Of a DNA stretch of 21,759 nucleotides, positions 2,408-17,872 are shown piece after piece (within the stretch, counting starts at the first letter, position 1; every line of letters starts with the position of its first letter). The DNA is from a virus. The stretch is from IMG/VR virus record IMGVR_UViG_3300025889_001085, positions 1 to 21,759 of that record. One strand, written 5' to 3'. The notes beneath the pieces are model-generated. The model saw only the letters and a list, made by a program, of their open reading frames with translations. It made no database searches and was not told where the DNA came from. Both the position numbers and the translations under genes were made by a program.

Positions 2408-4354
2408 TTATTGCGCTCCAATTCGATTTAGTAGTCCATCTGGTTGCGATTGCTCAAAGACAGTTGCACGGCGTCCAGCCTCTGCGCCAGTGGTTAAAAC
2501 GCGACCATATTTAGCAAGCAATTCTTCAAGAGCCGTCTGATCCATGAGCGCCTTTCGGACAAGTTCTGGATTATCAGACATTGCCGTATCAAGAACTTTC
2601 ATGCGTTGCTCATCAGTCAACATTGGGACTTTTTGCTGTAACAGCCGTGCGGCTGATTGCAACATTCCGAATGTATTGCCAGTTGCCACATTCATGGCGT
2701 CACCAATAGACAGCCCAGCGCCAGATTCGGCAGATTCTTTAAGCAATGGCATTGTAGGCGATCCAGCCTCTGGTCGAACGCGACGCGCAACTTCTGCGGT
2801 CTCTCCAGCCAAAGCAAGTTGTTTCTGCAATTGAGCAATATCGCCATCATCAAGAGCGACACGTAATACAGCACCCATTTGCTTGTCGGATTCAGCAAGG
2901 TTTGCAAATGTTGTACCTGTGCGGCGTGCTTTGTTGCGAATACTATCCATCACGCCAGCTTTAAATGCGGCATATTTTTGTGGTGACTGCTTGAGCTTTT
3001 CAACAAGAACTTCCAACTCATCAACGTTTGCGGTTAAAGCCTTGCGACCTTGGTCAAATGCCTCTGATGCGCCCTTGATGTTTGACCATTGCTGACGTGT
3101 TTGCTTTAGGTCAGGTGAAATATCATTGATTTGCGTGCGCAATGATGCCTCCACGCCGCCAACAGCATCAGCTAAATCGCCCTTGCCAACTCTGAATAAT
3201 TCGTCTTTCTTTGATGCAAGTGCGCGACGAACCATCTCAGCATCTTTTAATGTTGGCTGGCGAACCATGTCGATGACACCATCTTCTCGCTTGACAAACA
3301 GTGGGATGATGTTGCGGATGCCGTATGCGGCATTGATGTCCTGAACGGCGTCTGGTATTGACCGAGCGGCCAACAACATATTGTCGGTCATTTCTTTTGT
3401 GATTGCGGTGTCTGGCATTTCAGCAAACAACTTTTTATAAGCGTCAGACTCAGATTTCAAAAGTTCTTCTTCTGTGCGCTTAAACCCGCGAACCACATTT
3501 TCATCCATGTTGGGTGCTAAACGCTGTTGCAACCCACCCATCGCCTCGCCACGGGTTTCTTTTGCTCTTGCCGCTGTTTGCCTTAAAACACGCTCACCAG
3601 CTTCGCCACCCTCGGTAACATAGTTCTTCAAAACATTTGCAAGCGTTACGTTGTCCGTCATCAAGCGGCCCTCGTACACGTCCGCGATGACTTGGTCAAC
3701 ATTCTTGCCCGTCTTTTTCACAAGGCGTCGTAATTCAGCCTGCACAGCATCGCTTGCTTTTTCGCCAAACTTTTGCCGCGCCCAGTCAACAATATCGCCA
3801 CCTTTAGTGGCCAACTGACGGCCACCAAGAACAATTGTTGGTGACAGTACGGCGCCAGTCGCGGCGCCTGAAGCTGTATCACCAACAACTCCAGCAACTG
3901 TTGGCGCTTCGCTTGTACCTGCACCAGTAATAGCGCCCTCAACAGCGCCAATACCAATAAGTCTTCCAATGGCTGGAACAGAGGCTGGAATGGATGTACC
4001 TCCAGTTGCCACTGCCGCAATAACTGTTGGAAGTATTGCGCCAACAACTTCTGCGGTAATCGCTTTGCCTGAGTTTTCTTTTTTGTAATCGGTTAGTTGT
4101 TTGCGAATTTCGTCACGAATAACGTCGTACTTACGCCCACCCCAAGAATCGGGGACAACAGAGCGAATAGCCGCTTCAATTTCGTCAGACCAACCCAAGG
4201 TGGCGCCTTGGAAAAGGTTTCTTATAATCTGGCTGTCAGCAGGTGCTTTTGGCTCCATGCCAAGCATGGCTCGTCGCTCGGCAGACAAACCACCTTGTGC
4301 TGGTGGCTGTTGCGCCCCAGATAAAATTGCTTGACGTGCTGGGTCTAGTGCCAT
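2408..4354 (-). CDS. Large internal virion / DNA-ejection protein, membrane-active type
   Basis: 648-residue protein. Residues 46-64 (RNLFQGATLGWSDEIEAAI) match a motif I recall from phage ejection and virion proteins. Residues 98-175 form a long Gly/Ala/Val/Ile-rich hydrophobic stretch (AEVVGAILPTVIAAVATGG and GIGAVEGAITGAGT) resembling glycine-zipper segments of membrane-inserting proteins. The rest, from about residue 185, is charged, helical and rich in Ala, Glu, Lys and Arg, with likely coiled coils (LRRLVKKTGKNVDQVIADVY; VEKLKQSPQKYAAFKAGVMD). This layout fits a protein released into the cell envelope during DNA entry, as P22 gp7/gp16/gp20 or T7 gp14-16 are, but I see no specific homology to those. 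It lies two bases after the 428-aa gene and abuts the portal, so it belongs to the virion operon. No muramidase or transglycosylase motif was recognised. Confidence 0.85.
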   Translation of the reverse strand: MALDPARQAILSGAQQPPAQGGLSAERRAMLGMEPKAPADSQIIRNLFQGATLGWSDEIEAAIRSVVPDSWGGRKYDVIRDEIRKQLTDYKKENSGKAITAEVVGAILPTVIAAVATGGTSIPASVPAIGRLIGIGAVEGAITGAGTSEAPTVAGVVGDTASGAATGAVLSPTIVLGGRQLATKGGDIVDWARQKFGEKASDAVQAELRRLVKKTGKNVDQVIADVYEGRLMTDNVTLANVLKNYVTEGGEAGERVLRQTAARAKETRGEAMGGLQQRLAPNMDENVVRGFKRTEEELLKSESDAYKKLFAEMPDTAITKEMTDNMLLAARSIPDAVQDINAAYGIRNIIPLFVKREDGVIDMVRQPTLKDAEMVRRALASKKDELFRVGKGDLADAVGGVEASLRTQINDISPDLKQTRQQWSNIKGASEAFDQGRKALTANVDELEVLVEKLKQSPQKYAAFKAGVMDSIRNKARRTGTTFANLAESDKQMGAVLRVALDDGDIAQLQKQLALAGETAEVARRVRPEAGSPTMPLLKESAESGAGLSIGDAMNVATGNTFGMLQSAARLLQQKVPMLTDEQRMKVLDTAMSDNPELVRKALMDQTALEELLAKYGRVLTTGAEAGRRATVFEQSQPDGLLNRIGAQ

Positions 4355-4356
4355 AT

Positions 4357-5643
4357 TTATTGCCCGTTAATAAATTTTTGTTGCATATCTGCTGGTAACC
4401 TGTTGAAAGCGGCAACCTCGTCTTCGCTCATTTGAGACCTTAAATTTGGTGGCAACTGCACCGCGCCACCATAAACTGGGAAAGGTGTCTTGCGAGGTTC
4501 GCTTGTACGCATCTGAACGTACTCATTCATTGTCATGCCACTGGTAAGCAGTCGCGCATCGCTCATTAACTGGTTATACAGTTTTTCTTGGGCGCTGATT
4601 TTATCCTGAATGTGTTTCACCAACTCATCGCCAGATAAACTACGGTCAAGACCAGTTGACAGAGCCAAGCCCAATTCTTTCTCGCTCAATGCGCCAAAAG
4701 TTGCGCTGTTGATTATGTTAATACCCAAACGGCTGGCAATTTCGTTAAGTTCTGCGGTTGCCGAATCAAATGCGGGTAGCATTGAACGAATAATTCCAGA
4801 CTGTGCGCCACCTTTGGTGACAACTTCTTTTGCCCTGTTTAACAGGGTAATGGCTTCGTTTAAAGAAGACGCGCGTTTGTAAATTTCCTGACCAGCAACT
4901 GCGGCTTTTTCCATGCCAAAAACTTTGAGTCTTTCGGATGATTCTCTCTCCGCTTTCTGCTTTGGTGTCTCACCTTTTGCACCAGCAATGTCAACGCGCT
5001 CGACATCCATTGTGTCTGGCCTAAATCTAGAAACATATTGTTGCCCAGTATCTGGGTCTGTTTGTATTCCGCTTACTGTTGGGCTGGCTTTGCGTGCGTA
5101 CTTGGCTTGGATGATTTGTTGCAACACATCCTTTGCCACGGCTGGGTTTGCCTCAACAATGTCTGCGGCTTCTTTTTCGCCCATAGCCCTTAATTGCTGA
5201 ATAACAGCAGTGGCCGTTTTATTGCTGACACGTGTTGCCCGAATATCCTTTAGCTCTTCACCAAGAGTAGCCGCTAAAGACTGATCTGGATTTAAACGCA
5301 TAGTATTAAACCCAAGCGCCAGTCGGTTCATTAACTCGCGGTTTTGATACCAAGGCGTTTCTTCTGGTGTGAATTTGCCGCCACCAGCTTTCATTTCATA
5401 CCAGTTGGTCTGCGGCATTTGCGGATTATTCTGATAGCCGACAGAGGCGTCATGCAACATTGGCTGATTTGATTCAAAACCAGTTGAACCCTCATGCAAA
5501 AACTGTGGGGCTGGCGGCAACTGTGCGGCTTGTACAGGTTCTGGCATGGGCTGAACTCCAACATTTGGAATTCGCGGGTCACTCATTGCTTGCCCTTGAA
5601 CCAGTGGCTTCAGTCCATCCACTAATGCTTTAATTAACGCCAT
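4357..5643 (-). CDS. Putative internal virion protein, 428 aa, unknown
   Basis: I do not recognise a named family. The N-terminal 85 residues are Pro/Gln-rich and low in complexity (PMPEPVQAAQLPPAPQF). Residues about 100-400 are charged and probably helical, with Ala-rich stretches (RAMGEKEAADIVEANPAVAK; GLALSTGLDRSLSGDELVKH). The C-terminus (LPPNLRSQMSEDEVAAFNRL) is a short amphipathic tail. No signal peptide, membrane segment or catalytic motif is visible. It lies between a Gln-rich protein and the hydrophobic 648-aa protein, with only two bases on each side, which suggests a virion-internal or ejection role by position. A scaffold or tail-assembly role cannot be excluded. The start is ATG at 5643. 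Confidence 0.82.
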   Translation of the reverse strand: MALIKALVDGLKPLVQGQAMSDPRIPNVGVQPMPEPVQAAQLPPAPQFLHEGSTGFESNQPMLHDASVGYQNNPQMPQTNWYEMKAGGGKFTPEETPWYQNRELMNRLALGFNTMRLNPDQSLAATLGEELKDIRATRVSNKTATAVIQQLRAMGEKEAADIVEANPAVAKDVLQQIIQAKYARKASPTVSGIQTDPDTGQQYVSRFRPDTMDVERVDIAGAKGETPKQKAERESSERLKVFGMEKAAVAGQEIYKRASSLNEAITLLNRAKEVVTKGGAQSGIIRSMLPAFDSATAELNEIASRLGINIINSATFGALSEKELGLALSTGLDRSLSGDELVKHIQDKISAQEKLYNQLMSDARLLTSGMTMNEYVQMRTSEPRKTPFPVYGGAVQLPPNLRSQMSEDEVAAFNRLPADMQQKFINGQ

Positions 5644-8264: not shown

Positions 8265-9733
8265 CGCTTACCGCCCTGCTCGACGTTAAAGCGCATTTTG
8301 CCGATGCGCCAATTCGTATACTCGGAGCCTGTGAACCTGACTCGGATTTGCCGCCCAGTAGCACGCAGACTCGTTGGGTTCGACATTGAATACGGGCCGT
8401 ACTCACGCTCTTCACCATTGGGGTAGAAGCGGGTTTTGATGATTGCTGTGACATCGCCTTGGTTTAGTTCATCAGGAATCATTTGCGTCAGGTGCATGAC
8501 GTTGTCACCGTTTGCGATGTTGATCGGTCCGCTCTCCAGATACGGGCTGTTGCCGCCGTAATCGTTGCCAATTTCGTGGTTGTATGAGTTGCCATTGTGG
8601 TCAAACCAGACGGGCGTTGTAAATACACCAGAATCAACGCCAGCAGTGCGATCAAGTTGCCCGACAGTCCAGATATTGTCTTGGTAGTCGTAAACCACGT
8701 AACGATCATTTTCGGTCGAGTCTGCCGATGGATAGAACCACCAAATCTCACCAAAGCGCCCATTGTGAACGCCAAAAGATTTACTGATCTGCTGGCGGTT
8801 TATGTCGTTAAAAACATAATCCAACACGTCACACTTAATGACCGCCACTCCAGAACCGTTGAACATAAAGAAGTTGTTGCGCCCCATCCAGAACGCACCC
8901 TCACCAACAGCCACCAGACCCTTGCGTGTAGCGATACCACAAGACGATCCAACGCGCTCAAAGCCGTAGACGGTAGGTGGACCAGCATACGTCGCAATAT
9001 GCGCGTCAGTGGTCGTTAAAAGCAGTGTACGACCGCGAACACGAACACCACACATCAGTTCGCCGTTTGTCTGCAATTCAAAGTCGCCAGCCTCATTGGT
9101 CGCCGCTGGAGTCCAATCAGTGTTGTTCTCACGGTCGCACCAAGCCACCTTACGTGGGTTGCCATCAGCCCCCAGAGCAAAAATGAACCGCTCTTCAGTT
9201 GCAATGATGCCAACGCAGTCAATGGGTGAATTGGTGATCTGTGCCGCAATACCAGTCAGTGGCCACTCGTACAACTTCCCATCATCAACAGAACAACCGA
9301 TCAGGTATTCACCCCAGTTGTCCAGTTGCCATGTTGTGGCCTCCAGCACCACGCCGTCTGTTGGACGGGTTACGCCATAGTAACCAGTGCCAAAAGCCTT
9401 GCCGCCGTAAGCAATGTTTTCTGCCGCACTATCCTGACCAGCAGTGAAACCAGATGGGGTAATGTCAGTCGCAGTGCCGTCGTAGTTGATGGCGTACAAC
9501 TCATTGTATGTGCCAACAGCAAGGTGTGGGTCGTGTGAGTTGTCAAGCCAAGCGTGTGCCGCCCGTGGAGCCTCATCAACCACGTTTGCAACGCGAGTTA
9601 CCCAGCCCCCAACAGGTCGAATTGAATTGTTCTGCCAGCGGACTAAGTTTGCACTATTCCAGCGGCCAGAAGACTCGTAGTCTGTACCGTTGCTGTAAAC
9701 GCCCGCAGGCAAGTCAAGTTTAATTAAAGCCAT
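8261..9733 (-). CDS. Tail nozzle / P22 gp10-like stabilisation protein
   Basis: 490 residues, beta-rich throughout, without a signal peptide. The N-terminus (LDLPAGVYSNGTDYESSGRW, then NSANLVRWQNNSIRPVGGW at about 26-44) is the pattern I associate with phage head-stabilisation or tail-hub proteins related to P22 gp10, which seal the DNA channel and form the short-tail nozzle. The body has repeated blade-like segments (DPHLAVGTYNELYAINYDG; TEERFIFALGADG; GVFTTPVWFDHNG), consistent with a beta-propeller. The last 90 residues (MIPDELNQGDVTAIIKTRFY; GRQIRVRFTG) look like a beta-sandwich. It follows a tail protein and precedes the fibre, which fits a tail hub. The family assignment is from recall. 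Confidence 0.84.
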   Translation of the reverse strand: MALIKLDLPAGVYSNGTDYESSGRWNSANLVRWQNNSIRPVGGWVTRVANVVDEAPRAAHAWLDNSHDPHLAVGTYNELYAINYDGTATDITPSGFTAGQDSAAENIAYGGKAFGTGYYGVTRPTDGVVLEATTWQLDNWGEYLIGCSVDDGKLYEWPLTGIAAQITNSPIDCVGIIATEERFIFALGADGNPRKVAWCDRENNTDWTPAATNEAGDFELQTNGELMCGVRVRGRTLLLTTTDAHIATYAGPPTVYGFERVGSSCGIATRKGLVAVGEGAFWMGRNNFFMFNGSGVAVIKCDVLDYVFNDINRQQISKSFGVHNGRFGEIWWFYPSADSTENDRYVVYDYQDNIWTVGQLDRTAGVDSGVFTTPVWFDHNGNSYNHEIGNDYGGNSPYLESGPINIANGDNVMHLTQMIPDELNQGDVTAIIKTRFYPNGEEREYGPYSMSNPTSLRATGRQIRVRFTGSEYTNWRIGKMRFNVEQGGKR

Positions 9734-9741
9734 GCTTAACC

Positions 9742-10437
9742 CTATGCGGCAAGTTTAGTCCACGTTTCGCTTGTTGCTGGAATGGGTGTCCACGTTTCTG
9801 ATGTGACAACGTAAGGCTCCCATTTTTCTCGACCACCAATAGACGGCACAGTGGAAACTGCCTGAATCGACTGTACAGCAACGCTTCGCTGTCTAATGTA
9901 GTTAATTGAAACAGATGACGCTGACTCAATCCCCAAACCGCCAGCCGCTGTAATGTTGGCGCTTGCATCAAACACCAATTCAGATGCAATAGACGCGCTA
10001 CCAAGAGCCATCCTCTCACAATTGGCAGAGGTACTCGACAAAACAGATGTTGACGCCTCTGCATTGGTAATGAACTGCAATGAGGCTTCTGCAAGCGTCA
10101 CGCCAGCAACCACAGTTGCCGATCCTTGGATTACTTTAGTGCCAGATGCCGTTGAACCAACAGCAGACCCACCCATTGAGGCAAGCCCGTCAAACACCTC
10201 AACAGCCGCGGATGCCGTGGTGGATACTGCGGTTACATCCTGAGACGAACCCTCAATTACAAATACGCCGACAGCAGACCCGTCTGAACTTGCAGAAAAG
10301 GCGGCAGACCCGTAATAGACCTTGCCGCCAATAACGCTGGTTGTGGCAACGACAGAGCCAGATGCAGTTGCATCTACGTATGTGGTGACGCCGTAATTGC
10401 CATCACCAAAGTTTGCTATGCCATAGCCACGCGCCAT
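9742..10437 (-). CDS. Low-complexity Ser/Ala/Val-rich tail protein
   Basis: 231 residues, opening with MARGYGIANFGDGNYG, a start I recall from phage tail proteins. Residues 20-200 are almost only Ser, Ala, Thr, Val and Gly, with alternating polarity that predicts repeated beta strands and no charged core, as in fibrous or shell-like virion proteins. The C-terminus contains two 10-residue copies (TSETWTPIPA and TSETWTKLAA), encoded by a 30-base tandem repeat. No enzymatic motif, signal peptide or coiled coil is visible. It sits between the 126-aa structural protein and the gp10-like nozzle, three bases after the former. It is probably a tail or decoration component; the exact role is unknown. 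Confidence 0.8.
   Translation of the reverse strand: MARGYGIANFGDGNYGVTTYVDATASGSVVATTSVIGGKVYYGSAAFSASSDGSAVGVFVIEGSSQDVTAVSTTASAAVEVFDGLASMGGSAVGSTASGTKVIQGSATVVAGVTLAEASLQFITNAEASTSVLSSTSANCERMALGSASIASELVFDASANITAAGGLGIESASSVSINYIRQRSVAVQSIQAVSTVPSIGGREKWEPYVVTSETWTPIPATSETWTKLAA
9758..9798 (-). repeat. Two-copy 30-base tandem repeat encoding TSETWT
   Basis: GTCCACGTTTC occurs at 9758-9768 and again at 9788-9798 on the plus strand, in frame with period 30. It encodes the two terminal TSETWT copies of the Ser/Ala-rich tail protein. This is a recent or selected duplication inside the coding sequence, not a mobile element. Confidence 0.8.
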
Positions 10438-10440
10438 TTA

Positions 10441-10821
10441 TCAGTCCAGAGTAATGTCGAGATCGCCAGTTGGAATGCGGAACACGTCGCCAGAAGAGAT
10501 GGTCTTGCTGGCTGTCAAAGCCGCATAAGCAAGCAGATTCCCTGCGGTTGATGCGTCATAAATGCCAACGTGCGTTACCGTACCGTAGTTATCAGTTGCG
10601 GTTGGGTACTCGATAGCCGCAGTTGTCGTTGCGGTATTACCAGACACAGAAAAAGAACCAGCCTGACGCGCATAGCCGCCACCAGAAACCTCTGTGCCGC
10701 TACCGTCTTCTGCTGGGTTGGATGTAAACAGCGCAACATAAACAGCAGATGGTGATGTGTATGCGGTGTTTGTGAAAACGTGATCTAAGACTTTCGTCTC
10801 CAGATAATTTGAAAAGCTCAT
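10441..10821 (-). CDS. Virion/tail structural protein, gp80-like
   Basis: 126 residues, mostly beta, with the opening MSFSNYLETKVLDHVFTNTA, then AVYVALFTSNPAEDGSGTEV, a GGGYARQ motif at about residues 48-54, and a terminal VFRIPTGDLDITL. I recognise this pattern (nYleNklLdhvf...Y..P..vyvaLfts.P...G.g.Ev.ggsYaR) from a widespread small phage protein family often labelled tail-fibre-like or gp80-like. Members lie among tail genes and their exact position in the virion is poorly defined. The start codon overlaps the adaptor stop (ATGA), so translation is coupled to the adaptor gene. A decoration or tail role is inferred. Confidence 0.88.
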   Translation of the reverse strand: MSFSNYLETKVLDHVFTNTAYTSPSAVYVALFTSNPAEDGSGTEVSGGGYARQAGSFSVSGNTATTTAAIEYPTATDNYGTVTHVGIYDASTAGNLLAYAALTASKTISSGDVFRIPTGDLDITLD

Positions 10822-11444
10822 GCTAAACCTCTTACTTTAGGTACTAAACTGACGCCGCTGTATTTGGCGTTTTTGGATGACTCATTGAGCCGCGAAACAG
10901 CCGCAGAATACAGTTGCGCCCATACTGCGAGTCGAGCGTCGTCTTGTAGGTAGGGGGCTGAATGAATCAACGACCCGTACAAGTAAACGTCAGGAGCCGC
11001 GCTCAGTAACCAGTTTGTAGCATTTGAGGCTAAATCTGGCACTTGAGCGTAGTATAACAGTTCAACATCTACGTCTGCAATTGGGGTTGGGTATAAGTGA
11101 AACTGCCCAGCTTCCAATGTGTAGTATTTCGGTGTGTTGTATTGGTCGTTGGCGATTGCCCGCATATCAGCCATCGAGGTCGAGTCGATCATCTTGATGG
11201 GTGATGTGCCGTTACCAACAACGTTAAACCGCAGGGTCTCAACCCAGTCGGCAGGGACTTGCATATAAGCGTCGCCAGCAGACTGTTGACCACTTGTACG
11301 AGTCTCCATGCGCCAGTGACGCACGTCGCGGTTGACCGCCGCCTCACACAGCGAAATGAATGTGGGAATGGACGACGTGAGGTCGTCTCGGTTCAATGTC
11401 TCTGCAATGGTCGATCGCAGGTTTGTGTAGTTAGTTAATGCCAT
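10818..11444 (-). CDS. Head-tail adaptor protein, SU10-like
   Basis: 208 residues. The N-terminus MALTNYTNLRSTIAETLNRD, followed by IPTFISLCEAAVNRDVRHWR at about 26-45, is the helical hallmark of the SU10-type phage adaptor family. These proteins attach as a dodecameric ring below the portal and connect it to the short tail. Residues 55-130 form a beta-rich middle (YMQVPADWVETLRFNV; KYYTLEAGQFHLYP) with the VELLYYAQVPDL strand. The C-terminal helix carries APDVYLYGSLIHSAPYLQDD, a conserved AP.ly.yg.l..aa.yl.dd pattern. The location immediately before tail genes fits. Partners should be the portal at 308-2407 and the gp10-like protein. The family call is quite confident, from recall of the motif. 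Confidence 0.9.
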   Translation of the reverse strand: MALTNYTNLRSTIAETLNRDDLTSSIPTFISLCEAAVNRDVRHWRMETRTSGQQSAGDAYMQVPADWVETLRFNVVGNGTSPIKMIDSTSMADMRAIANDQYNTPKYYTLEAGQFHLYPTPIADVDVELLYYAQVPDLASNATNWLLSAAPDVYLYGSLIHSAPYLQDDARLAVWAQLYSAAVSRLNESSKNAKYSGVSLVPKVRGLA

Positions 11445-11448
11445 AGTA

Positions 11449-11712
11449 TTACCACTTTACTTTGTCAGCCCAGTAAGCCGCCGACATCTTGCCCTTGGCA
11501 ATGTTCTTGGCGTGTCGAGCCTTGAACGCTTCGTTGCGCTTTGATCCATCAGGTGAGCCTTTTGCGCCCTGCTGACCAAAACGAATTGTCTTTACCTGTT
11601 CGCCAGACTTGGCCACCACGACGTGCGACTTGGTCGGATGGCTTGGTGTCTTCTTTGGCTTATTGTAGCCAGAGACGCCAGCACGCGCCAGTCGGCTGTC
11701 CTTGGTAGCCAT
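11449..11712 (-). CDS. 87-aa basic conserved phage protein
   Basis: Very basic protein, rich in Lys, Gly and Ser, ending in KARHAKNIAKGKMSAAYWAD and KVKW. I recall this C-terminal block as strongly conserved in small proteins of many podovirus and siphovirus genomes, beginning with an SRLARAGVSGYNKPKKTPSH-like segment as here. No biochemical function is known to me; the composition suggests nucleic-acid or capsid-internal contact. Its ATG at 11712-11710 shares a base with the stop of the 36-aa gene (TAATG), and the adaptor starts five bases after its stop. The position between terL and the adaptor makes a virion role plausible. Confidence 0.87.
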   Translation of the reverse strand: MATKDSRLARAGVSGYNKPKKTPSHPTKSHVVVAKSGEQVKTIRFGQQGAKGSPDGSKRNEAFKARHAKNIAKGKMSAAYWADKVKW

Positions 11713-11822
11713 TACTTGCTCTTAGCGAGGCATTTGCCTGCCTTTTTGCACATGGCTGGAGTTGGGCAACCAGCGCATGGTTTGAATGCTTTGACAGGGA
11801 TTACTTTTTTCTTTGTAGCCAT
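11712..11822 (-). CDS. 36-aa Cys-rich microprotein
   Basis: A short frame from ATG at 11822 to TAA at 11712 encodes MATKKKVIPVKAFKPCAGCP and a further 16 residues. Four cysteines at 16, 19, 25 and 31 (CAGC, then MCKKAGKC) could bind a metal ion or form disulphides. The protein is strongly basic. The start shares a base with the stop of the 150-aa gene and the stop shares a base with the next start (both TAATG). GGTGGG lies about 6 bases upstream. These junctions make translation likely. I have a vague recall of similar CxGC...KKAGKC microproteins in phages; the function is unknown, and a zinc knuckle is only a suggestion. Confidence 0.75.
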   Translation of the reverse strand: MATKKKVIPVKAFKPCAGCPTPAMCKKAGKCLAKSK

Positions 11823-12274
11823 TATTTACCCACCATTCTTAAAAGTCCACCAGCGGACGGGTTCTTGCCCAGCTTTGAAAACGGGCTTTCGTACTCAGGC
11901 TCGTCGTCATAAATGATCTTCCAGTTGTTTTTGGGGTCACCATGAAGACCAGTTCCCTCATACGAAACAATTGGAGCCGCCCTCGTTGGGTCAGCTTGAT
12001 CCAGCGCGGTTTGCATCATGTGCGTGTAGTTGATCACAGGCACTTCGCCATAAAACGCTTTTGCAGACGCATAGGGTTCACCAGTCATTGCCCCGTAAGC
12101 ATCAGTAGCAGTACCAACAGCATTCAAAAGACCCTTGCCCTTTTGATAAGCCATGTACTGCGGACCAAGCCCAACTGCCCACGCTCCAAGCATTTTAGCC
12201 AAAGAATACGCATTGTCTTCATTGAAGACAGGGTGAGGGTATTGCGGGCGCTCTTCTGGGATGTTATCAGCCAT
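11822..12274 (-). CDS. 150-aa phage protein, unknown
   Basis: Not recognised as a named family. Residues about 20-65 are mildly hydrophobic and Gly/Ala-rich (SLAKMLGAWAVGLGPQYMAY, then GLLNAVGTATDAYGAMTG). The rest is polar (NYTHMMQTALDQADPTRAAP), ending basic (SAGGLLRMVGK). There is no clear transmembrane helix or signal peptide. The start ATG shares a base with the stop of the 55-aa gene and the stop shares a base with the 36-aa gene, so the three are translationally linked. Lying between terL and the adaptor, it may be a minor virion or ejection-associated protein. It shares a style with the 187-aa protein upstream: Tyr/Asn/Pro-rich, with a PAGL/AGGL-type end. Confidence 0.8.
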   Translation of the reverse strand: MADNIPEERPQYPHPVFNEDNAYSLAKMLGAWAVGLGPQYMAYQKGKGLLNAVGTATDAYGAMTGEPYASAKAFYGEVPVINYTHMMQTALDQADPTRAAPIVSYEGTGLHGDPKNNWKIIYDDEPEYESPFSKLGKNPSAGGLLRMVGK

Positions 12275-12441
12275 TACTTCTTCGCTTTATTGCGCTTTGC
12301 GCGCATATTGCGCTCTGGTAGTGAGCGACCAGCCATGCTCATGGCAATGGCCACAGCCTGCTTCTGGGGCTTTCCAGCTTTTATCTCAGTCTTGATGTTC
12401 TTGGAAATGGTCTTGGCGCTTGAGCCTTTTTTCAGTGGCAT
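12274..12441 (-). CDS. 55-aa basic phage microprotein
   Basis: The frame runs from ATG at 12441 to TAA at 12274 and encodes [20 protein letters not shown] followed by [20 protein letters not shown] and a Lys/Arg-rich tail. The block K.iskNI..Ei.[12 protein letters not shown] is one I recall from very common short phage proteins near head genes; the function is unknown to me. It is highly basic and probably a single helical hairpin. AAGGA lies 5 bases upstream of the ATG. The gene starts 9 bases after the 187-aa gene's stop, and its own stop overlaps the next start (TAATG). Confidence is high because of the family pattern, the Shine-Dalgarno and the exact fit between neighbours. Confidence 0.88.
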
Positions 12442-12449
12442 ATCAATCC

Positions 12450-13013
12450 TTAAAGTGATGGCAACAAGCCAGCGGGCTTGTAGCGGATGTCAACTGGTCG
12501 CCCATCTTTGCCGATGTACGCCATGCCAATCTCGCTTGCCGCACCCTTGAGTCCCTTTAAAGCACCAGCGTTAGTCGCCCGTGCCGCCGCAACAAGTGGC
12601 TTCATTAAAGGATTCGTGTTTTCGTAGCCCTCGACAATCTTCTGCCGCTGTGGATTATTGAAGTCGTAATTGTCTTTAATGACGCGCGTGCCGTCTGGCA
12701 GTGTTTCGTAAGTAAAACGACCCAAGACGTTGGCAAACATATCTAAATCAGGATTGCCTGCAACAGCGCCCATTTTGTCGATGTTTGGATAATCTTTGTA
12801 CTGAATATCGCCCTTGTCGCCCTTACCAGCCAACAGGCTTTCCAACTCACGTAATTGGTACGGGTTGAAGTCTTCAGCAGTAATTGGCTTAGATCGGTCG
12901 CCAAACAGAACGTTCAAAAACATCTGCTCTTTGGTCATTGGAGGACGATAATCGCCACGACTGCCAACCACAAGTGCAGACTCTGGGTCTAAATTGTCAA
13001 GTAAGCCGCCCAT
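12450..13013 (-). CDS. 187-aa phage protein, unknown
   Basis: I do not recognise a family. Features: an N-terminal [20 protein letters not shown], a [20 protein letters not shown] segment, a GKGDKGD turn at about 63-69, and a C-terminal part with [20 protein letters not shown] and a final basic KPAGLLPSL. No transmembrane helix, signal sequence or catalytic motif is visible. The start ATG at 13013 has AGGAA 5 bases upstream. It is the first gene after a candidate promoter with a TATAAT box in the 47-base spacer behind terL. Its role may be structural, like that of its neighbours, but this is only position-based. Confidence 0.83.
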
Positions 13014-13039
13014 ACCATTTCCTAAAATAGTTCGTTTTG

Positions 13040-13068
13040 ATTATAGCGGTCACCAAAGAGTTAAGCAA
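13040..13068 (-). promoter_or_regulatory. Candidate sigma70-type promoter behind terL
   Basis: On the minus strand a perfect TATAAT lies at 13045-13040 and TTGCTT at 13068-13063, with exactly 17 bases between. The -35 box covers the last codon and stop of terL. The predicted transcript would start near 13033, about 20 bases ahead of the 187-aa gene, and cover the virion genes. This is a sequence match only. Confidence 0.5.
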
Positions 13069-14356
13069 TTCCTTTCAGATTTCGCCTGATTGGAGCGCCC
13101 CAGTCGGATGTAGCCCTGTGACCGACCGCCAGATACCTGAAAGCATCAGAGCCGTGCGATGCCCAGTCGTGGGCTGGTCTTGAGCGCCATACCTTGCCGT
13201 TGTCGTCATATTCCCTGTGATACTGCCTGAGAGCATCTATACCGCGCTCACAGCGTTCTGCATCGAACCAGCAGTTGGCAAGCATCGACCGTACCGCTTG
13301 GATGCCGTCATCAACCATTAGTTGCGGCGCAATCGTAATCGGCTTGACACCCAGCCCGTCCAGCGTCTCAAGGCGTGACTTGCCCGACCCAAGCTCTCGG
13401 ACTCTAACGTCGTGAGGCAGAATATGGTTCGTGTAGACGTACCCTTTTTGGTTGAGTATCTGCACGTAGTGACCCAGCCCCACACCCGACGACTCATAGT
13501 AGTCAATGAGGCGAACCTCTGCCCCAACGTGTTGAGCGAACCAGATGGCTGTCGAGTCACCCACACCCAAGTCCCATGCGGTAGTGACCCCAATGCTCGG
13601 AGTGTAGTCAACAGTGCCGATTTGACCCTTATCCTTGCAATTGCGCATTTCAGTAGCGTAATACGCACCTTCAGCGTGAACAAGAAAATCACCCTCCCAA
13701 ACGTGGTCATAAATGTCTGGCCTCTTTCGTTTGTCTTCGAGCCGCTCCCTGTCCAGCACATCTGGGAACCAAGGATTGTCTCTCCAGTTCATGTCAATAA
13801 TGATGGCGTCGTCAGGCGCTTGCTCCACGAACCGCTTATGAGTCGCCGACTCTTTGGATTCAGGGTTGTACGTCACCCATATCTCTGAGTCGTTTTCCCG
13901 TACCGTTGGAATCAGCTTGCGCCAAGCCGTCTCACTGACCGACTCAGCCTCGTCGATCCACGCCACCAGAATACGTGCCTTTGACTTCAGGCTATCCAGT
14001 GACCGTCGTAGACCAGCAAATGTGTACGTAATCGCCCCGTCCTTTGACTTGATGTATTTGTCGCCCAGTTCGTAGTACGCATCAAGCTCTGGGACGCTCC
14101 TGATAGCCGCCTTGACCTCTTCCAGCGACGAATCGTCCAATGAGTTCATAAACTCACGACCACAGAGGATTTGCCCAGACAACCCAGCCCTACCCCACTG
14201 GTAACCCCTGACCGCAGTCATCAAAGCAAATGTGCGAGTCTTTGCACTGCCTCGGCCGCCTTTGGCTACACGGTAGCGCGCTTTCTTTGTGAAAACGGGA
14301 ATCAGCTTTGGCGGTAAGGTAAGACGTAGTTCAGGCTCTGTCTTCTTACTCATCAT
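13061..14356 (-). CDS. terL: Terminase large subunit (packaging ATPase/nuclease)
   Basis: Motor that threads phage DNA through the portal and cuts the concatemer. 431 residues, a usual length for PBSX-type terminases. The N-terminal ATPase has a Walker A GGRGSAKT at 33-40, Walker B ILVAWIDEAE at 129-138 (catalytic Glu after Asp), and a coupling motif VTYNPES at 161-167. The C-terminal RNase H-like nuclease has WDLGVGDSTAIWF starting with Asp262, LIDYYE at 284-289 (acidic), HD at 315-316 and a SHGSDAFRYL block at 400-409. All key residues appear present. The start overlaps terS by 11 bases; two tandem ATGs are available, and AGG lies 5 bases before the first. The partner is terS, upstream, and the portal. 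Confidence 0.96.
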   Translation of the reverse strand: MMSKKTEPELRLTLPPKLIPVFTKKARYRVAKGGRGSAKTRTFALMTAVRGYQWGRAGLSGQILCGREFMNSLDDSSLEEVKAAIRSVPELDAYYELGDKYIKSKDGAITYTFAGLRRSLDSLKSKARILVAWIDEAESVSETAWRKLIPTVRENDSEIWVTYNPESKESATHKRFVEQAPDDAIIIDMNWRDNPWFPDVLDRERLEDKRKRPDIYDHVWEGDFLVHAEGAYYATEMRNCKDKGQIGTVDYTPSIGVTTAWDLGVGDSTAIWFAQHVGAEVRLIDYYESSGVGLGHYVQILNQKGYVYTNHILPHDVRVRELGSGKSRLETLDGLGVKPITIAPQLMVDDGIQAVRSMLANCWFDAERCERGIDALRQYHREYDDNGKVWRSRPAHDWASHGSDAFRYLAVGHRATSDWGAPIRRNLKGIA

Positions 14357-14738
14357 CTGGACCTACCAAGCGGATGACAACTGGCTGACTTGCTGGAGTC
14401 ATTGAGCCATCGGAAGACGTTGCGTCCACCTTGTCTGAGTATCCATGCTTAGTCAGGATCATCTTGGTGATCGAGGCATTGAAGTGCCCCATCAAACCGT
14501 TTCGGATGAGTTCGTCTTCCTGCATTGACATGAGTTTTGCATAAATGTGAGAAAACTCTGGCTTGTCTTCGTCTTTAGCCCATGCTTGTAGTGTTTCACG
14601 GGCGACATCAAGTCGGACAGCAAGCCCTGCAATGCTTGGTAATGTGTTGAAGTCTTTTAAGTACCTGTGGCACTCTTCAAGCAGTTCAGGCGTGTATTTT
14701 GTTGGCCTGCCGCCTGCGTGTTTGGTTGGTTCTGTCAT
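14346..14738 (-). CDS. terS: Terminase small subunit
   Basis: Recognises phage DNA and loads the large subunit at the start of packaging. 130 residues. The N-terminus has the GGRPTKYTPEL signature at about 9-19, common in gp3-like small terminases, then a helix-turn-helix (LPSIAGLAVRLDVARETLQA at about 33-52), followed by a helical oligomerisation part (KLMSMQEDELIRNGLMGHFN). A segment SITKMILTKHGYSDKVDA at about 89-106 is also typical of the family. The C-terminal tail (PVVIRLVGPDDE) may contact the large subunit. The gene overlaps terL by 11 bases, in the usual terS-terL order. It starts 37 bases after the ADP-ribosyltransferase-like gene. Confidence 0.93.
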   Translation of the reverse strand: MTEPTKHAGGRPTKYTPELLEECHRYLKDFNTLPSIAGLAVRLDVARETLQAWAKDEDKPEFSHIYAKLMSMQEDELIRNGLMGHFNASITKMILTKHGYSDKVDATSSDGSMTPASQPVVIRLVGPDDE

Positions 14739-14775
14739 AGTGTTCTCTCTGTAAAACAGGTGGAGATTAAAAGGC

Positions 14776-15702
14776 TTATTCTAACGGTATGCCATTCCGC
14801 TCAAGAATCTTTAATAAACCCTCGTTTTGTGGAAACACCACAAAGTTGCGCGTGTCAGCTTTCTTGCCGCCACGACTCTGAGCATCAAAGTATCTGATCC
14901 CAGTCACTCCAGCAGAGCGCATGGCTTCAGCACCCTCTGGTAGCTTTGCATTCATAGCGGCAACCAAGTCGCCACCAAGATCATCAGGAGCCAGACCAAA
15001 CTTTTTGGCCAAAGCCTGCACTTCTGGTGTCTGCTTGCTGATCTCAGCATCCCAGTCAAGCATCTTTGCGATCTGGTCGTCTGGCAAGTCAATTTTGTAC
15101 AAATTCCCTTGGCTTTCTAACGGTTTTGCATAATTGCCAGATTCCAACAAATCAAGCGTCTCAGTAAGCAATTTTTTTTGCTCATGGAGTGGATTGTTTT
15201 CAAGCACAAATCGAATATCATCTGCGGCATATTTTGCATCACCCGCAAGCTCCGCTAACCGCTTGGCATTTGCGTGTGCGTTTAATCGACCTTGATTAGC
15301 AATATCTCGGTTTGATAAATTTGTCGCATAGCTTTTTGCTGTTTCTGGACTTTCAGCAACATAGTGCCCGTAACCATAAGCCTGTGCGCCCTCACCAGAA
15401 CCAATTGATTTTGGTGCGAATGCATTGAACTTGTATGGGCTACCGTGGAACACAGTCATGCCCATCGGGTTATATGCTTCAGCCAGCAGACCAGACAACT
15501 CTTGACTCTTTGGACCAAACAGTGGACCACCGTTGCGACCCTCTTGAGCCGCCTCGGATGTCAAGGCATTCAACACCCCAGCACGGTCATTAGCGTTGCC
15601 AACGATCTGCTGTGCCGACTCCACTGGGTTTGATAGCATATCCAGCAGAGACCTCTTAAATGAGTCTGCGGTGCTATAAATGGATGCTAATGGTGATGGC
15701 AT
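14776..15702 (-). CDS. Putative ADP-ribosyltransferase-like protein (polyvalent-protein type)
   Basis: 308 residues in two parts. Residues 1-75 are helical and of unknown role. From about 80 a domain shows signs of a phage ADP-ribosyltransferase fold: MTVFHGSPYKFNAF (His-Gly at 86-87), GSGEGAQAYGYGHYVAESPE (101-120, with Tyr at 114), LYKIDLPD (201-208), GVTGIRYFDAQSRGG (265-279) and NFVVF (286-290). Such HG/YG.Y/NFVVF domains occur in phage and mobile-element polyvalent proteins, which travel with the DNA and modify host targets using NAD. The third catalytic residue is not clear to me, so activity is uncertain. It overlaps the 516-aa gene by one base (TAATG) and precedes terS. There is no signal peptide or membrane segment. 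Confidence 0.82.
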   Translation of the reverse strand: MPSPLASIYSTADSFKRSLLDMLSNPVESAQQIVGNANDRAGVLNALTSEAAQEGRNGGPLFGPKSQELSGLLAEAYNPMGMTVFHGSPYKFNAFAPKSIGSGEGAQAYGYGHYVAESPETAKSYATNLSNRDIANQGRLNAHANAKRLAELAGDAKYAADDIRFVLENNPLHEQKKLLTETLDLLESGNYAKPLESQGNLYKIDLPDDQIAKMLDWDAEISKQTPEVQALAKKFGLAPDDLGGDLVAAMNAKLPEGAEAMRSAGVTGIRYFDAQSRGGKKADTRNFVVFPQNEGLLKILERNGIPLE

Positions 15703-17252
15703 TACTTCTTGCCCTTTTTCTTTGGCATGAGCGGCTTATTCATGTCGGGCATACCATATTTGGCTTCAAACTCCAACATGGCGTCCAGCAATCCACGGTC
15801 TTTTCTTAGCTCTTGGAACGCTTTGACACGGTCAACAATTTCTGGCGTTACCAGTTGAGACACGCCCTCTTTTCTACGGGTAAGCGCGGCCAACAGTGAT
15901 GACCTGTTAAACGCATTATCTTTCTTACCCTCTGCGGCAAAAGTATGACGCATATTTTCAATGGCGTCTTTCATGAAAACTTCTGCTGGCATATTACCAG
16001 CCGTTCCCAAGTAAGTTCCAGAGAAATCTGTGTCGTATGTTCGGTTGTTCGATTTACTCAGTGTTACTGGGTCTGTGCCATGCGTAATCACCGTGTTCAT
16101 TCCAAAACCAGACGGCAGTCCAATTAAATCTGGGTCGGAAATGGCGTTGTAAAGGTCAGCCTTGTTGTAACCAAAAAACTGTTCGTTTGGTTTTTGACGC
16201 ATGATTGCCATCAGCGCCTTACGATAATCGCCGCCAGTTGGTCCTTGTAATTGAGCCTGACCAAGCGGGGTGGCAATTCCAGCAAAAGGTGGCTTTTTCT
16301 CCAACAACGCAGACCTTGCCATTGCGTCGTCAATCTCAGCCGCCTTTGCTTTTGTCAGCTTTGGCAGAATAAAGCTGTCCATCAAAACATCAAGCGGCTG
16401 TACAGAAAAGTCTTCACCAAACTGACCCATTGTCATTGCTGTTTGGTCTACCTCACCAGTACCGCCCGCCTTTAAATTCTCTTTTCGAGCCTCGCCAACG
16501 CGACCAGCAATTCTATTAGATATTCCAAAATTTGATGACCCGCCAATGTTCTTCTTAATATGCTCAAGGTCGCGCGCGAACATTTGACCGCCATGCGTAA
16601 TGGCATCGCCTTTTATTGGCTCATCAGATACAGACACAATTTGGCGATTGCGGCTTGAAGCGTCCCAAGGCATCAACAACAAACTTGAACCTTGGCGATC
16701 TTCAATGTTTAAGTCTTTTTTGGGTGCAATACCGCCAATGTCTTTTGTAACGTATCGGGTTCCAGCGCGATGCCCGCGTTTTGCTGTGTTTTCGTAAATG
16801 GCTGGTGCAAGACCGCTGGCGCTCAGATAGTCTTCCAGCTTATTGCCAATATATGGTGCGGCTTCTCTTGCAATAGCAGAACCAGTGCGACCAATGCCAC
16901 CAGCAACAGCCATTGGGTCTATGCCTCCAGACGTCATTTCAGCGCCAAGCCGAACATCTCGTAAGGTCGGGTCGCTAGAGACGGGCGGTCTGATTCCCGC
17001 GTCAACCGCATTTCTTTTTAACCAATCGCTACCGCCAGCAGTTTCTCCAATATTGAAGCCCAAGGCTTTCATCAAGCCAGAACTTAAATCAACGGGAGCG
17101 CCCGCCGCATCATAGGCCAAATCGCCTACGCCAGCCAAAATTGCATTCAGAACATCAATATTTGACGGCTTTCGACGCTTGTCTTTAGCAGGGGTCGGCG
17201 CGAACGCCGCCGCTTCAGGGTCACCTAAAAGGTCAAATAATGTTTGCGCCAT
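15702..17252 (-). CDS. Large polyvalent-protein-like protein, unknown role
   Basis: 516 residues. Residues 30-135 are Gly/Ala-rich (GVGDLAYDAAGAPVDLSSGL, MAVAGGIGRTGSAI). From about 185 on there is a domain with the pattern ITHGGQMFARD (218-228), FGISNRI (242-248), MGQFGEDFS (275-283), FAGI (323-326), YRKALMAIM (343-351), YNAISDPDL (368-376) and RTYDTDFSGTYLG (404-416). I recall a similar pattern as one domain of very large phage and mobile-element polyvalent proteins, where it is an associated domain of unknown function. The end is basic (PKKKGKK). Here it stands alone with the ART-like protein as partner. It is the first gene after the strong terminator. ATG at 17252 has only a weak Shine-Dalgarno, so leaderless-like or coupled translation is possible. 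Confidence 0.83.
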   Translation of the reverse strand: MAQTLFDLLGDPEAAAFAPTPAKDKRRKPSNIDVLNAILAGVGDLAYDAAGAPVDLSSGLMKALGFNIGETAGGSDWLKRNAVDAGIRPPVSSDPTLRDVRLGAEMTSGGIDPMAVAGGIGRTGSAIAREAAPYIGNKLEDYLSASGLAPAIYENTAKRGHRAGTRYVTKDIGGIAPKKDLNIEDRQGSSLLLMPWDASSRNRQIVSVSDEPIKGDAITHGGQMFARDLEHIKKNIGGSSNFGISNRIAGRVGEARKENLKAGGTGEVDQTAMTMGQFGEDFSVQPLDVLMDSFILPKLTKAKAAEIDDAMARSALLEKKPPFAGIATPLGQAQLQGPTGGDYRKALMAIMRQKPNEQFFGYNKADLYNAISDPDLIGLPSGFGMNTVITHGTDPVTLSKSNNRTYDTDFSGTYLGTAGNMPAEVFMKDAIENMRHTFAAEGKKDNAFNRSSLLAALTRRKEGVSQLVTPEIVDRVKAFQELRKDRGLLDAMLEFEAKYGMPDMNKPLMPKKKGKK

Positions 17253-17253
17253 A

Positions 17254-17268
17254 GTAAAACCATTTTAC
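17254..17268 (-). promoter_or_regulatory. Palindrome and TAAAAT box before the 516-aa gene
   Basis: GTAAAA and TTTTAC flank a CCA centre at 17254-17268, a perfect 6-base inverted repeat ending one base before the ATG. On the minus strand it contains TAAAAT (17267-17262), one mismatch from TATAAT, with TTGCAG 16 bases upstream. It could be a promoter with an operator, or an initiation-region hairpin. Both are weak readings. Confidence 0.3.
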
Positions 17269-17269
17269 C

Positions 17270-17299
17270 AAAAAAAACGCCCACTGCAATAGTGAGCGT
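17270..17299 (-). terminator. Rho-independent terminator after ninG
   Basis: On the minus strand ACGCTCACT (17299-17291) pairs with AGTGGGCGT (17285-17277) across a 5-base loop ATTGC, with one U-G wobble, and is followed by an uninterrupted run of T to 17270. It follows the ninG stop by about 30 bases and should end the early/middle transcript. A second small hairpin (GTTGGA/TCCAAC, 17302-17316) precedes it. Confidence 0.9.
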
Positions 17300-17329: not shown

Positions 17330-17872
17330 TCAGTCTACGCGCTCTTTTGCTAAACGTCTAGCCTCTGCCCGATAATGTCTTGCGATTTCTTCCAGCGCCT
17401 CTTTTGTGTACTTTCGTAGCACGTTGTCGTTTTCGATTTGCTCAAGCCTTTCCAGTCCGATTCGCTCCAGCAACCGCTTGCGGTACTCGACCGCATTTCC
17501 TGACAGGTGTCGGTTACATTTTTTGCATTGGGCCCAACAGTTTAATTCGCAAAACCTCATGTGTGGCGCCGAGCCAACCGAGCGAAAGTGACCTGCGTCG
17601 AACGTGTTTGGTTCGTTACCGAGCGGCGTATCGCATGAGATACAGTTCTTACCCCGATCTCGCTCTCTAATGTAAGCGTTGAATGCTGTCTGGGCTTTCT
17701 TGACCAACTGGGGCTTCGTCTGGAGCGCATCCAGTTTCAGCTTGGTCTCTTTCTTGTCTTTTTTTTCGACGACCTTACGCGCAACTTTCATTGCGCAGGC
17801 AGGACCACACACACTCTGCATGGGGCGCACTGGGGTAAATGGTGTCTTGCACTCTTTGCACTTTTTAGTCAA
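17330..17872 (-). CDS. ninG: NinG/Rap-like recombination protein
   Basis: Homologue of lambda NinG (Rap), a structure-specific nuclease that helps resolve recombination intermediates. 180 residues against about 200 in lambda. The N-terminal zinc finger has Cys5, Cys8, Cys22 and Cys26. After a basic coiled stretch (31-60), the HNH-like core reads CISCDTPLG (77-85), FDAGHFRSVGSAPHMRF (91-107) and NCWAQCKKCN (111-120), with Cys112, Cys116 and Cys119 as likely zinc ligands and His95 catalytic. A helical Arg/Lys/Glu tail follows. The start is TTG at 17872, overlapping the ninB stop by 8 bases, with GGGGTGG just upstream; the next ATG would cut off the first CxxC. It sits directly after ninB as in lambda-type nin regions. 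Confidence 0.92.
   Translation of the reverse strand: MTKKCKECKTPFTPVRPMQSVCGPACAMKVARKVVEKKDKKETKLKLDALQTKPQLVKKAQTAFNAYIRERDRGKNCISCDTPLGNEPNTFDAGHFRSVGSAPHMRFCELNCWAQCKKCNRHLSGNAVEYRKRLLERIGLERLEQIENDNVLRKYTKEALEEIARHYRAEARRLAKERVD

What the first reader, a model, noticed from the sequence alone, without database searches (positions are those of the whole stretch)
14776..17252. Two-gene polyvalent-like / ADP-ribosyltransferase module between the nin region and terminase
The sequence shows a 516-aa and a 308-aa gene linked by a one-base TAATG overlap, bounded by a strong terminator on one side and terS on the other. The second has HG, YG.Y and NFVVF motifs in the order of an ART fold; the first resembles a domain of giant polyvalent proteins. 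In known cases such domains are fused in one very long protein delivered with DNA. Here they look split into two separately translated proteins, without a giant protein. I infer a virion-delivered or early-acting NAD-using effector pair that may modify host or defence targets. This is my best candidate for an undescribed system.
Basis: partly seen in the sequence, partly recalled or inferred. Interest (0 to 1): 0.68.

Follow-up and report, generated by a model that had tools for sequence, protein, structure and literature searches.

The report
Swappable injected-effector cargo slot in phage
Next to its DNA-packaging genes this freshwater-type phage carries two cargo genes, one a predicted ADP-ribosylating enzyme; relatives swap other effector-like domains in and out of the same spot, sometimes onto the same short front piece, which suggests an exchangeable set of proteins loaded into the virus particle and injected into the host.

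Summary
In detail: P516 (15702-17252, -) and ART308 (14776-15702, -) overlap by one base (TAATG), between a conserved terminator after ninG and terS. ART308 residues 82-304 form an ART-PolyVal-type ADP-ribosyltransferase: H86/Y114/D273 conserved in 48/50/48 of 50 sequences, ART fold predicted, structural matches to viral ART-PolyVal proteins and RES/ParT toxins. P516 residues 175-457 match a phage domain (profile E 1e-11) absent from Pfam and PHROGs; one homologue is fused to InPase, a polyvalent domain, two genes from a GNAT/M15/ART-PolyVal protein. 'Polyvalent-like' is therefore supported.

The 'pair' is not. In all 7 other P516 loci whose next gene is visible (three distinct arrangements) that gene is not the ART, and the ART occurs without P516. 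The locus is a cargo slot: flanks up to 98% identical enclose different genes, and an 82-residue header is joined to unrelated C-terminal domains. Solo ARTs are the common form (55 of 64 complete relatives are 600 aa or less), often beside terL or portal, a theme already published. Most likely these are late-made, head-packaged, injected effectors; packaging and targets are inferred. New variant of a known kind.

The parts
17330..17872 (-). ninG (upstream fixed flank of the cargo slot)
   Evidence: phrog_171 NinG/Rap E 1.7e-77; syntenic in relatives
17277..17299 (-). conserved intrinsic-terminator-like hairpin plus T-run between ninG and the first cargo gene
17260..17271 (-). TTGGTAAAATGG directly upstream of the first cargo start codon; TAAAAT part invariant among relatives; possible extended -10 element (inferred)
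   Evidence: only exact copy in the window
15702..17252 (-). P516, slot-1 cargo gene
   Evidence: ORF; relatives L001 (87%), L002 (100%), L043/L087 (77%), L083-L086 (76%); dN/dS 0.05-0.09
15882..16730 (-). P516 residues 175-457: phage domain shared with the alternative slot-1 protein S528 and with phages MW202879, OQ984150, OQ401624 and MW202675 (there fused to InPase)
   Evidence: hhalign probability 97.4, E 1.1e-11; HMM hits; Pfam InPase in L093
14776..15702 (-). ART308, slot-2 cargo gene
   Evidence: ORF; 80 related viral loci
15457..15702 (-). N84/N82 header of ART308 (residues 1-82), joined in relatives to ART, to an LPD23/HEFQH domain, or to an unrelated 200-aa domain
14791..15459 (-). 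ART domain (residues 82-304); H86 at 15445-15447, Y114 at 15361-15363, D273 at 14884-14886
   Evidence: Pfam ART-PolyVal E 1.8e-5; model and fold matches; conservation
15109..15351 (-). hypervariable helical insert of the ART (residues 118-198)
   Evidence: 16% mean identity against 71% before it and 52% after it; length 21-144 residues among relatives
14346..14738 (-). terS (downstream fixed flank)
   Evidence: phrog_309 E 8.9e-8, phrog_3064 E 1.2e-7
13061..14356 (-). terL
   Evidence: phrog_3717 E 3.2e-63

Best explanation
The region is a cargo slot at the start of the packaging/late gene block, between the ninG terminator and terS. It holds one or two interchangeable genes of polyvalent type. 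Each gene is a front section (header) plus a C-terminal effector-like domain. Here slot 1 holds P516 and slot 2 holds ART308, a solo H-Y-D ADP-ribosyltransferase on an 82-residue helical header. Most likely the genes are transcribed late with terS/terL, the proteins are loaded into the head through their headers, and they enter the host with the DNA. The ART then uses NAD+ to ADP-ribosylate host or defence macromolecules, as T4 Alt does for RNA polymerase. P516 is probably a second injected protein of unknown chemistry. Shown: ART family, fold and conserved triad; P516 domain homology; slot position; exchange of genes, headers and domains. Inferred: late expression, packaging, injection, enzymatic activity, targets.
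For: ART-PolyVal profile, H/Y/D conservation and ART fold. P516 domain fused to InPase, near a GNAT/M15/ART-PolyVal protein and between portal and capsid genes. In relatives the ART gene lies beside terL or portal in 46 of 75 loci, although many contigs are short. Phage phiGT1 carries its homologue between portal and scaffold genes. Slot exchange: L007 and L083 share ninG (98.4%) and terS-terL (95.8%) but hold different cargo; L001 and L044 share a 97.7% identical slot-2 gene with P516 present or absent. Header exchange: L003 and L029 are 76/80 identical over residues 1-80, then fall to background. Domain exchange: the L003 ART is 95.6% identical over 661 bp to the ART of L006, which has a different header and location, with the boundary at codon 83. 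No integrase in five related records (fragments). Published precedent for head-packaged ARTs: PMC5512222, PMC9503650.
Against: No virion proteomics was readable, and the headers match no known packaging signal. Position beside terminase could instead mean late intracellular action. P516 has no reliable model (pLDDT 34) and no known enzymatic motif. The Pfam score of ART308 (25.9 bits) is below the curated cut-off of 31.2.
Confidence: 0.6

Rival explanations
1. The ART and its slot neighbours act inside the producing cell late in infection (protecting terminase or packaging from defences, or blocking superinfection) and are not packaged.
For: The genes lie directly upstream of terS/terL, and PMC9503650 itself names protection of the packaging machinery as an alternative. 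No packaging signal is identified.
Against: Homologues also sit between portal and scaffold/capsid genes. The companion domains (InPase, LPD23, zincin-like HEFQH) belong to polyvalent proteins thought to be injected.
Confidence: 0.22
2. P516 and ART308 form a dedicated, co-functional NAD-using effector pair.
For: One-base overlap and shared boundaries in the window; L002 is 99.9% identical to the window over P516 and upstream.
Against: P516 is followed by non-ART genes in seven other loci. The ART occurs without P516 (L003) or with S528 (L004, L007).
Confidence: 0.06
3. ART308 is a toxin of a toxin-antitoxin or addiction unit, P516 or another neighbour being the antitoxin (best solved-structure matches are the RES and ParT toxins).
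For: Top PDB fold matches are RES-Xre and ParT-ParS toxins.
Against: The matches are weak (best E 0.12) and reflect the shared ART fold. No small partner gene lies between ART308 and terS (37 bp). P516 is not tied to the ART. No prophage or integrase evidence.
Confidence: 0.04
4. The proteins are mainly structural internal virion proteins; the ART fold is used for binding and is not catalytic.
For: Glycine/alanine-rich helical headers in P516 and S528 resemble ejection-type sequences (inference). ART308 evolves faster than P516.
Against: H, Y and D are conserved in 48-50 of 50 sequences while the insert between them varies freely, which is the pattern of an enzyme. Relatives survive without either gene.
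Confidence: 0.08

Closest known systems
ART-PolyVal (PF18760), Tox-ART-HYD2 clade, in phage polyvalent proteins (Iyer et al. 2017, PMC5512222)
   Same: ART fold; H in strand 1, Y in strand 2, D at a later strand; phage head-gene context; homologous by profile, structure and bridging sequences.
   Different: A 308-aa solo protein, not one multidomain polypeptide; its own 82-aa header; large hypervariable insert; single-sequence Pfam score below cut-off.
Head- and terminase-linked phage ARTs (Iyer et al. 2022, PMC9503650)
   Same: Gene near terminase/portal, presumed synthesised and packaged with the head.
   Different: That survey does not, as far as read here, describe a ninG-terS slot with exchange of genes, headers and domains or the P516 domain.
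Phage T4 Alt
   Same: Works-like model: head-packaged ART injected with DNA that modifies host proteins.
   Different: Alt belongs to the R-S-E clade with an unrelated active site; packaging of ART308 is untested.
MuF polymorphic toxins (Jamet et al. 2017, cited in PMC9206674)
   Same: Constant N-terminal region with exchangeable C-terminal effector domains in phage particles (analogy).
   Different: No MuF domain in ART308 or P516, no immunity gene beside them, no sign of lysogeny.

Membership tests
ART-PolyVal / HYD-type ART | Profile match | tested here: inconclusive
   PF18760 E 1.8e-5, 25.9 bits, below curated 31.2; homologous relatives L063 and L093 score 76.7 and 65.5 bits, so membership rests on bridging homologues
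ART-PolyVal / HYD-type ART | H (strand 1), Y (strand 2), D (later strand) active site | tested here: met
   H86 48/50, Y114 50/50, D273 48/50, on or at strands 82-88, 113-116 and 268-272 of the model
ART-PolyVal / HYD-type ART | ART fold | tested here: met
   Model pLDDT 82.9; BFVD matches to ART-PolyVal proteins E 5.7e-19 and below; PDB top matches are ART-fold toxins but with weak E (0.12)
ART-PolyVal / HYD-type ART | ADP-ribosyl transfer from NAD+ | not testable with these tools
   needs biochemistry
Polyvalent protein (sensu Iyer 2017) | Two or more effector domains in one polypeptide | tested here: not met
   One recognisable domain each in ART308 and P516; so not filed as a polyvalent protein
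Polyvalent protein (sensu Iyer 2017) | Phage head/packaging gene context | tested here: met
   terS and terL directly downstream
Polyvalent protein (sensu Iyer 2017) | Delivered with DNA | not testable with these tools
   phiGT1 virion mass-spectrometry table exists (PMC10386132, Table S3) but supplements could not be read
MuF polymorphic toxin | N-terminal MuF domain | tested here: not met
   No such match in Pfam for either protein
MuF polymorphic toxin | Adjacent immunity gene | tested here: not met
   37 bp between ART308 and terS; no ORF there in sense
T4 Alt / R-S-E ARTs | R-S-E active site | tested here: not met
   H-Y-D instead

The most novel reading that the evidence does not exclude
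The N82 header and the S528-type header are interchangeable virion-loading modules, and this lineage of apparently lytic aquatic phages runs a polymorphic injected-effector system: a fixed genomic slot in which header, effector domain and even the helical insert of the ART are exchanged between co-circulating phages, with P516 carrying an undescribed effector domain.
Probability: 0.4. Interest if true: 0.65.

Novelty: new variant of a known kind. Interest (0 to 1): 0.45.

Why it matters
It turns a vague idea (phage heads carry effectors) into a testable layout: short constant headers attached to different effector domains at one fixed site. If the headers load proteins into heads, they would show how phages pick injected cargo. 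The ART, with constant catalytic blocks and a freely varying insert, would be a direct case for asking which host or defence targets drive effector change. The P516 domain adds an uncatalogued family to the polyvalent domain list.

Tried and rejected
P516 against Pfam, PHROGs, NCBIfam, PDB sequences and phage records: nothing; its N-terminal 134 residues against phages at E 10: nothing. P516 structure: unusable, pLDDT 34. P516 in genome contigs: none; in 398 Pseudomonadota genomes one marginal hit, which lies in a pyruvate:ferredoxin oxidoreductase-like protein and was rejected. First P516-S528 profile comparison with three near-identical S528 sequences failed (1.6%); it succeeded only after adding distant homologues. 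The unrelated C-terminal domain of L029/L043 ('HGG') as a diverged ART: inconclusive, 25 columns, 19.6%. ART308 as anti-CRISPR AcrIF11-like: E 0.1, not pursued. A sigma-70 promoter for the module: none above chance.

Full report
WHAT IS THERE. The window is a 21.8-kb virus record. P516 (15702..17252, -) and ART308 (14776..15702, -) are complete ORFs sharing one base (TAATG). Upstream is ninG, then a terminator-like hairpin; downstream are terS and terL. Both ORFs are under purifying selection: dN/dS 0.05-0.09 for P516 and about 0.39 for ART308 against L004 (synonymous sites are saturated in several comparisons).

ART308. Pfam ART-PolyVal matches residues 82-191 at E 1.8e-5, but at 25.9 bits against a cut-off of 31.2. 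An alignment of 50 sequences shows H86 (48/50), Y114 (50/50) and D273 (48/50), on or at predicted strands. This is the H-Y-D layout that PMC5512222 gives for polyvalent ARTs. The AlphaFold2 model (pLDDT 82.9) matches viral ART-PolyVal proteins in BFVD with E down to 5.7e-19 (an unnamed viral protein at 1.3e-23). In the PDB the best matches are RES-Xre and ParT toxins, then exotoxin A and PARP4 ART domains, with weak E-values. The catalytic blocks are well conserved; residues 118-198, a helical insert, are not (16% mean identity to the window, length 21-144 residues).

P516. No library matched it. Its residues 175-457 align to the alternative slot-1 protein S528 and its distant phage relatives with probability 97.4 and E 1.1e-11. 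Positions invariant in the eight-sequence alignment include D197, S283, R344 and Y406 of P516. In phage MW202675 the same domain (residues 395-739 of an 898-aa protein) is followed by an InPase domain; two genes upstream is a GNAT/M15/ART-PolyVal protein, and the group lies between a head-to-tail connector and the major capsid gene. PMC5512222 lists InPase among phage polyvalent domains.

THE SLOT. Relatives keep ninG, the terminator, about 78 bp to the first cargo start codon, terS and terL, but the cargo differs. Window: P516 + N82-ART. L001: P516 + N82-LPD23/HEFQH. L043 and L087: P516 + N82-'HGG'. L083-L086: P516 + a 685-aa protein with an S528-type front. L004, L007, L008: S528 + N82-ART. 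L029, L030: S528 + N82-'HGG'. L003: N82-ART alone. L044: N82-LPD23/HEFQH alone. L098: two S528-fronted proteins of 682 and 733 aa. Thus in none of the seven other P516 loci with a visible neighbour is that neighbour the ART. The 'pair' is one draw from a set.

EXCHANGE. Three levels are visible. Whole genes: L007 and L083 share ninG at 98.4% and terS-terL at 95.8%, with different cargo between; L001 and L044 share a 97.7% identical slot-2 gene, with and without P516. Header against domain: L003 and L029 match at 76 of 80 residues up to position 80, then at background level. Domain alone: the L003 ART is 95.6% identical at DNA level over 661 bp, starting at codon 83, to the ART of L006, which has an S528-type front and lies behind a homologue of a window virion-region gene. 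In addition L011 is about 99.4% identical to the window over 6.3 kb, yet carries the ART allele of L004 at 100% over some 700 bp; an assembly chimaera across the shared stretch cannot be excluded there.

HOW IT MOST LIKELY WORKS. The cargo opens the packaging-gene block after the ninG terminator, so late expression is likely (inferred; no consensus promoter above chance, but a conserved GGTAAAAT-type element just before the first start codon). Polyvalent-type companions, terminase/portal neighbourhood in 46 of 75 ART loci and the published precedent of T4 Alt point to packaging in the head and injection. The ART would then modify host or defence macromolecules. The conserved core with a freely varying insert fits changing targets or escape from inhibitors (inference). 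The headers are the obvious candidates for the loading signal (inference; no packaging signal known).

WHAT IS KNOWN. Solo ARTs near terminase and portal genes, presumed packaged, are described in PMC9503650, and solo versions of polyvalent domains in PMC5512222. Of 64 complete ART ORFs found here, 55 are 600 aa or shorter and 8 exceed 900 aa. Separate translation is thus ordinary. What goes beyond those descriptions, as far as read here, is the fixed ninG-terS slot with header/domain exchange, and the P516 domain. The relatives are nearly all viral contigs: one genome contigs match for the ART and none for P516, and no integrase in five related records, which suggests but does not prove a lytic life style.

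VERDICT. Observation confirmed; interpretation partly supported. New variant of a known kind.

Noticed in passing
window 11822-13013 and the same place in L044 (3543-5378), L003, L029, L083: A second variable spot after terL: two unmatched small genes (187 and 150 aa) in the window, a 611-aa DUF7178 protein in L044, and no such gene in L003, L029 and L083.
   Followed up: partly
L011 1-700 against L004 and window 8779-15410: A contig almost identical to the window carries the ART allele of L004 at 100%; recent recombination or an assembly chimaera.
   Followed up: partly
window 17260-17276 (-): TTTTTTTTGGTAAAAT sits just before the first cargo start codon in nearly all relatives, with no Shine-Dalgarno sequence visible; it may be an extended -10 element of a nearly leaderless late transcript.
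   Followed up: partly
L098 6001-8049: 682-aa cargo protein with an S528-type front, a conserved-looking VHDFYGH...GAHSQMFSPLARIAM region and an ART-like C-terminal end by eye; no Pfam match.
   Followed up: partly
L029 3804-4664 and L043 2654-3535: C-terminal domain of about 200 aa on the N82 header, with an HGG start and no family match; might be a strongly diverged ART (inconclusive).
   Followed up: partly
L093 2015-9512 (phage MW202675): Three consecutive polyvalent-type genes between the head-to-tail connector and capsid genes, annotated as peptidase M15, hypothetical and 'type I restriction enzyme'; the last is really a P516-like domain plus InPase.
   Followed up: yes
window 2408-5643 (-): 648-aa and 428-aa proteins next to the portal gene with only weak matches (phrog_5880, unknown; phrog_26675, labelled endolysin); probably internal virion proteins.
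   Followed up: no
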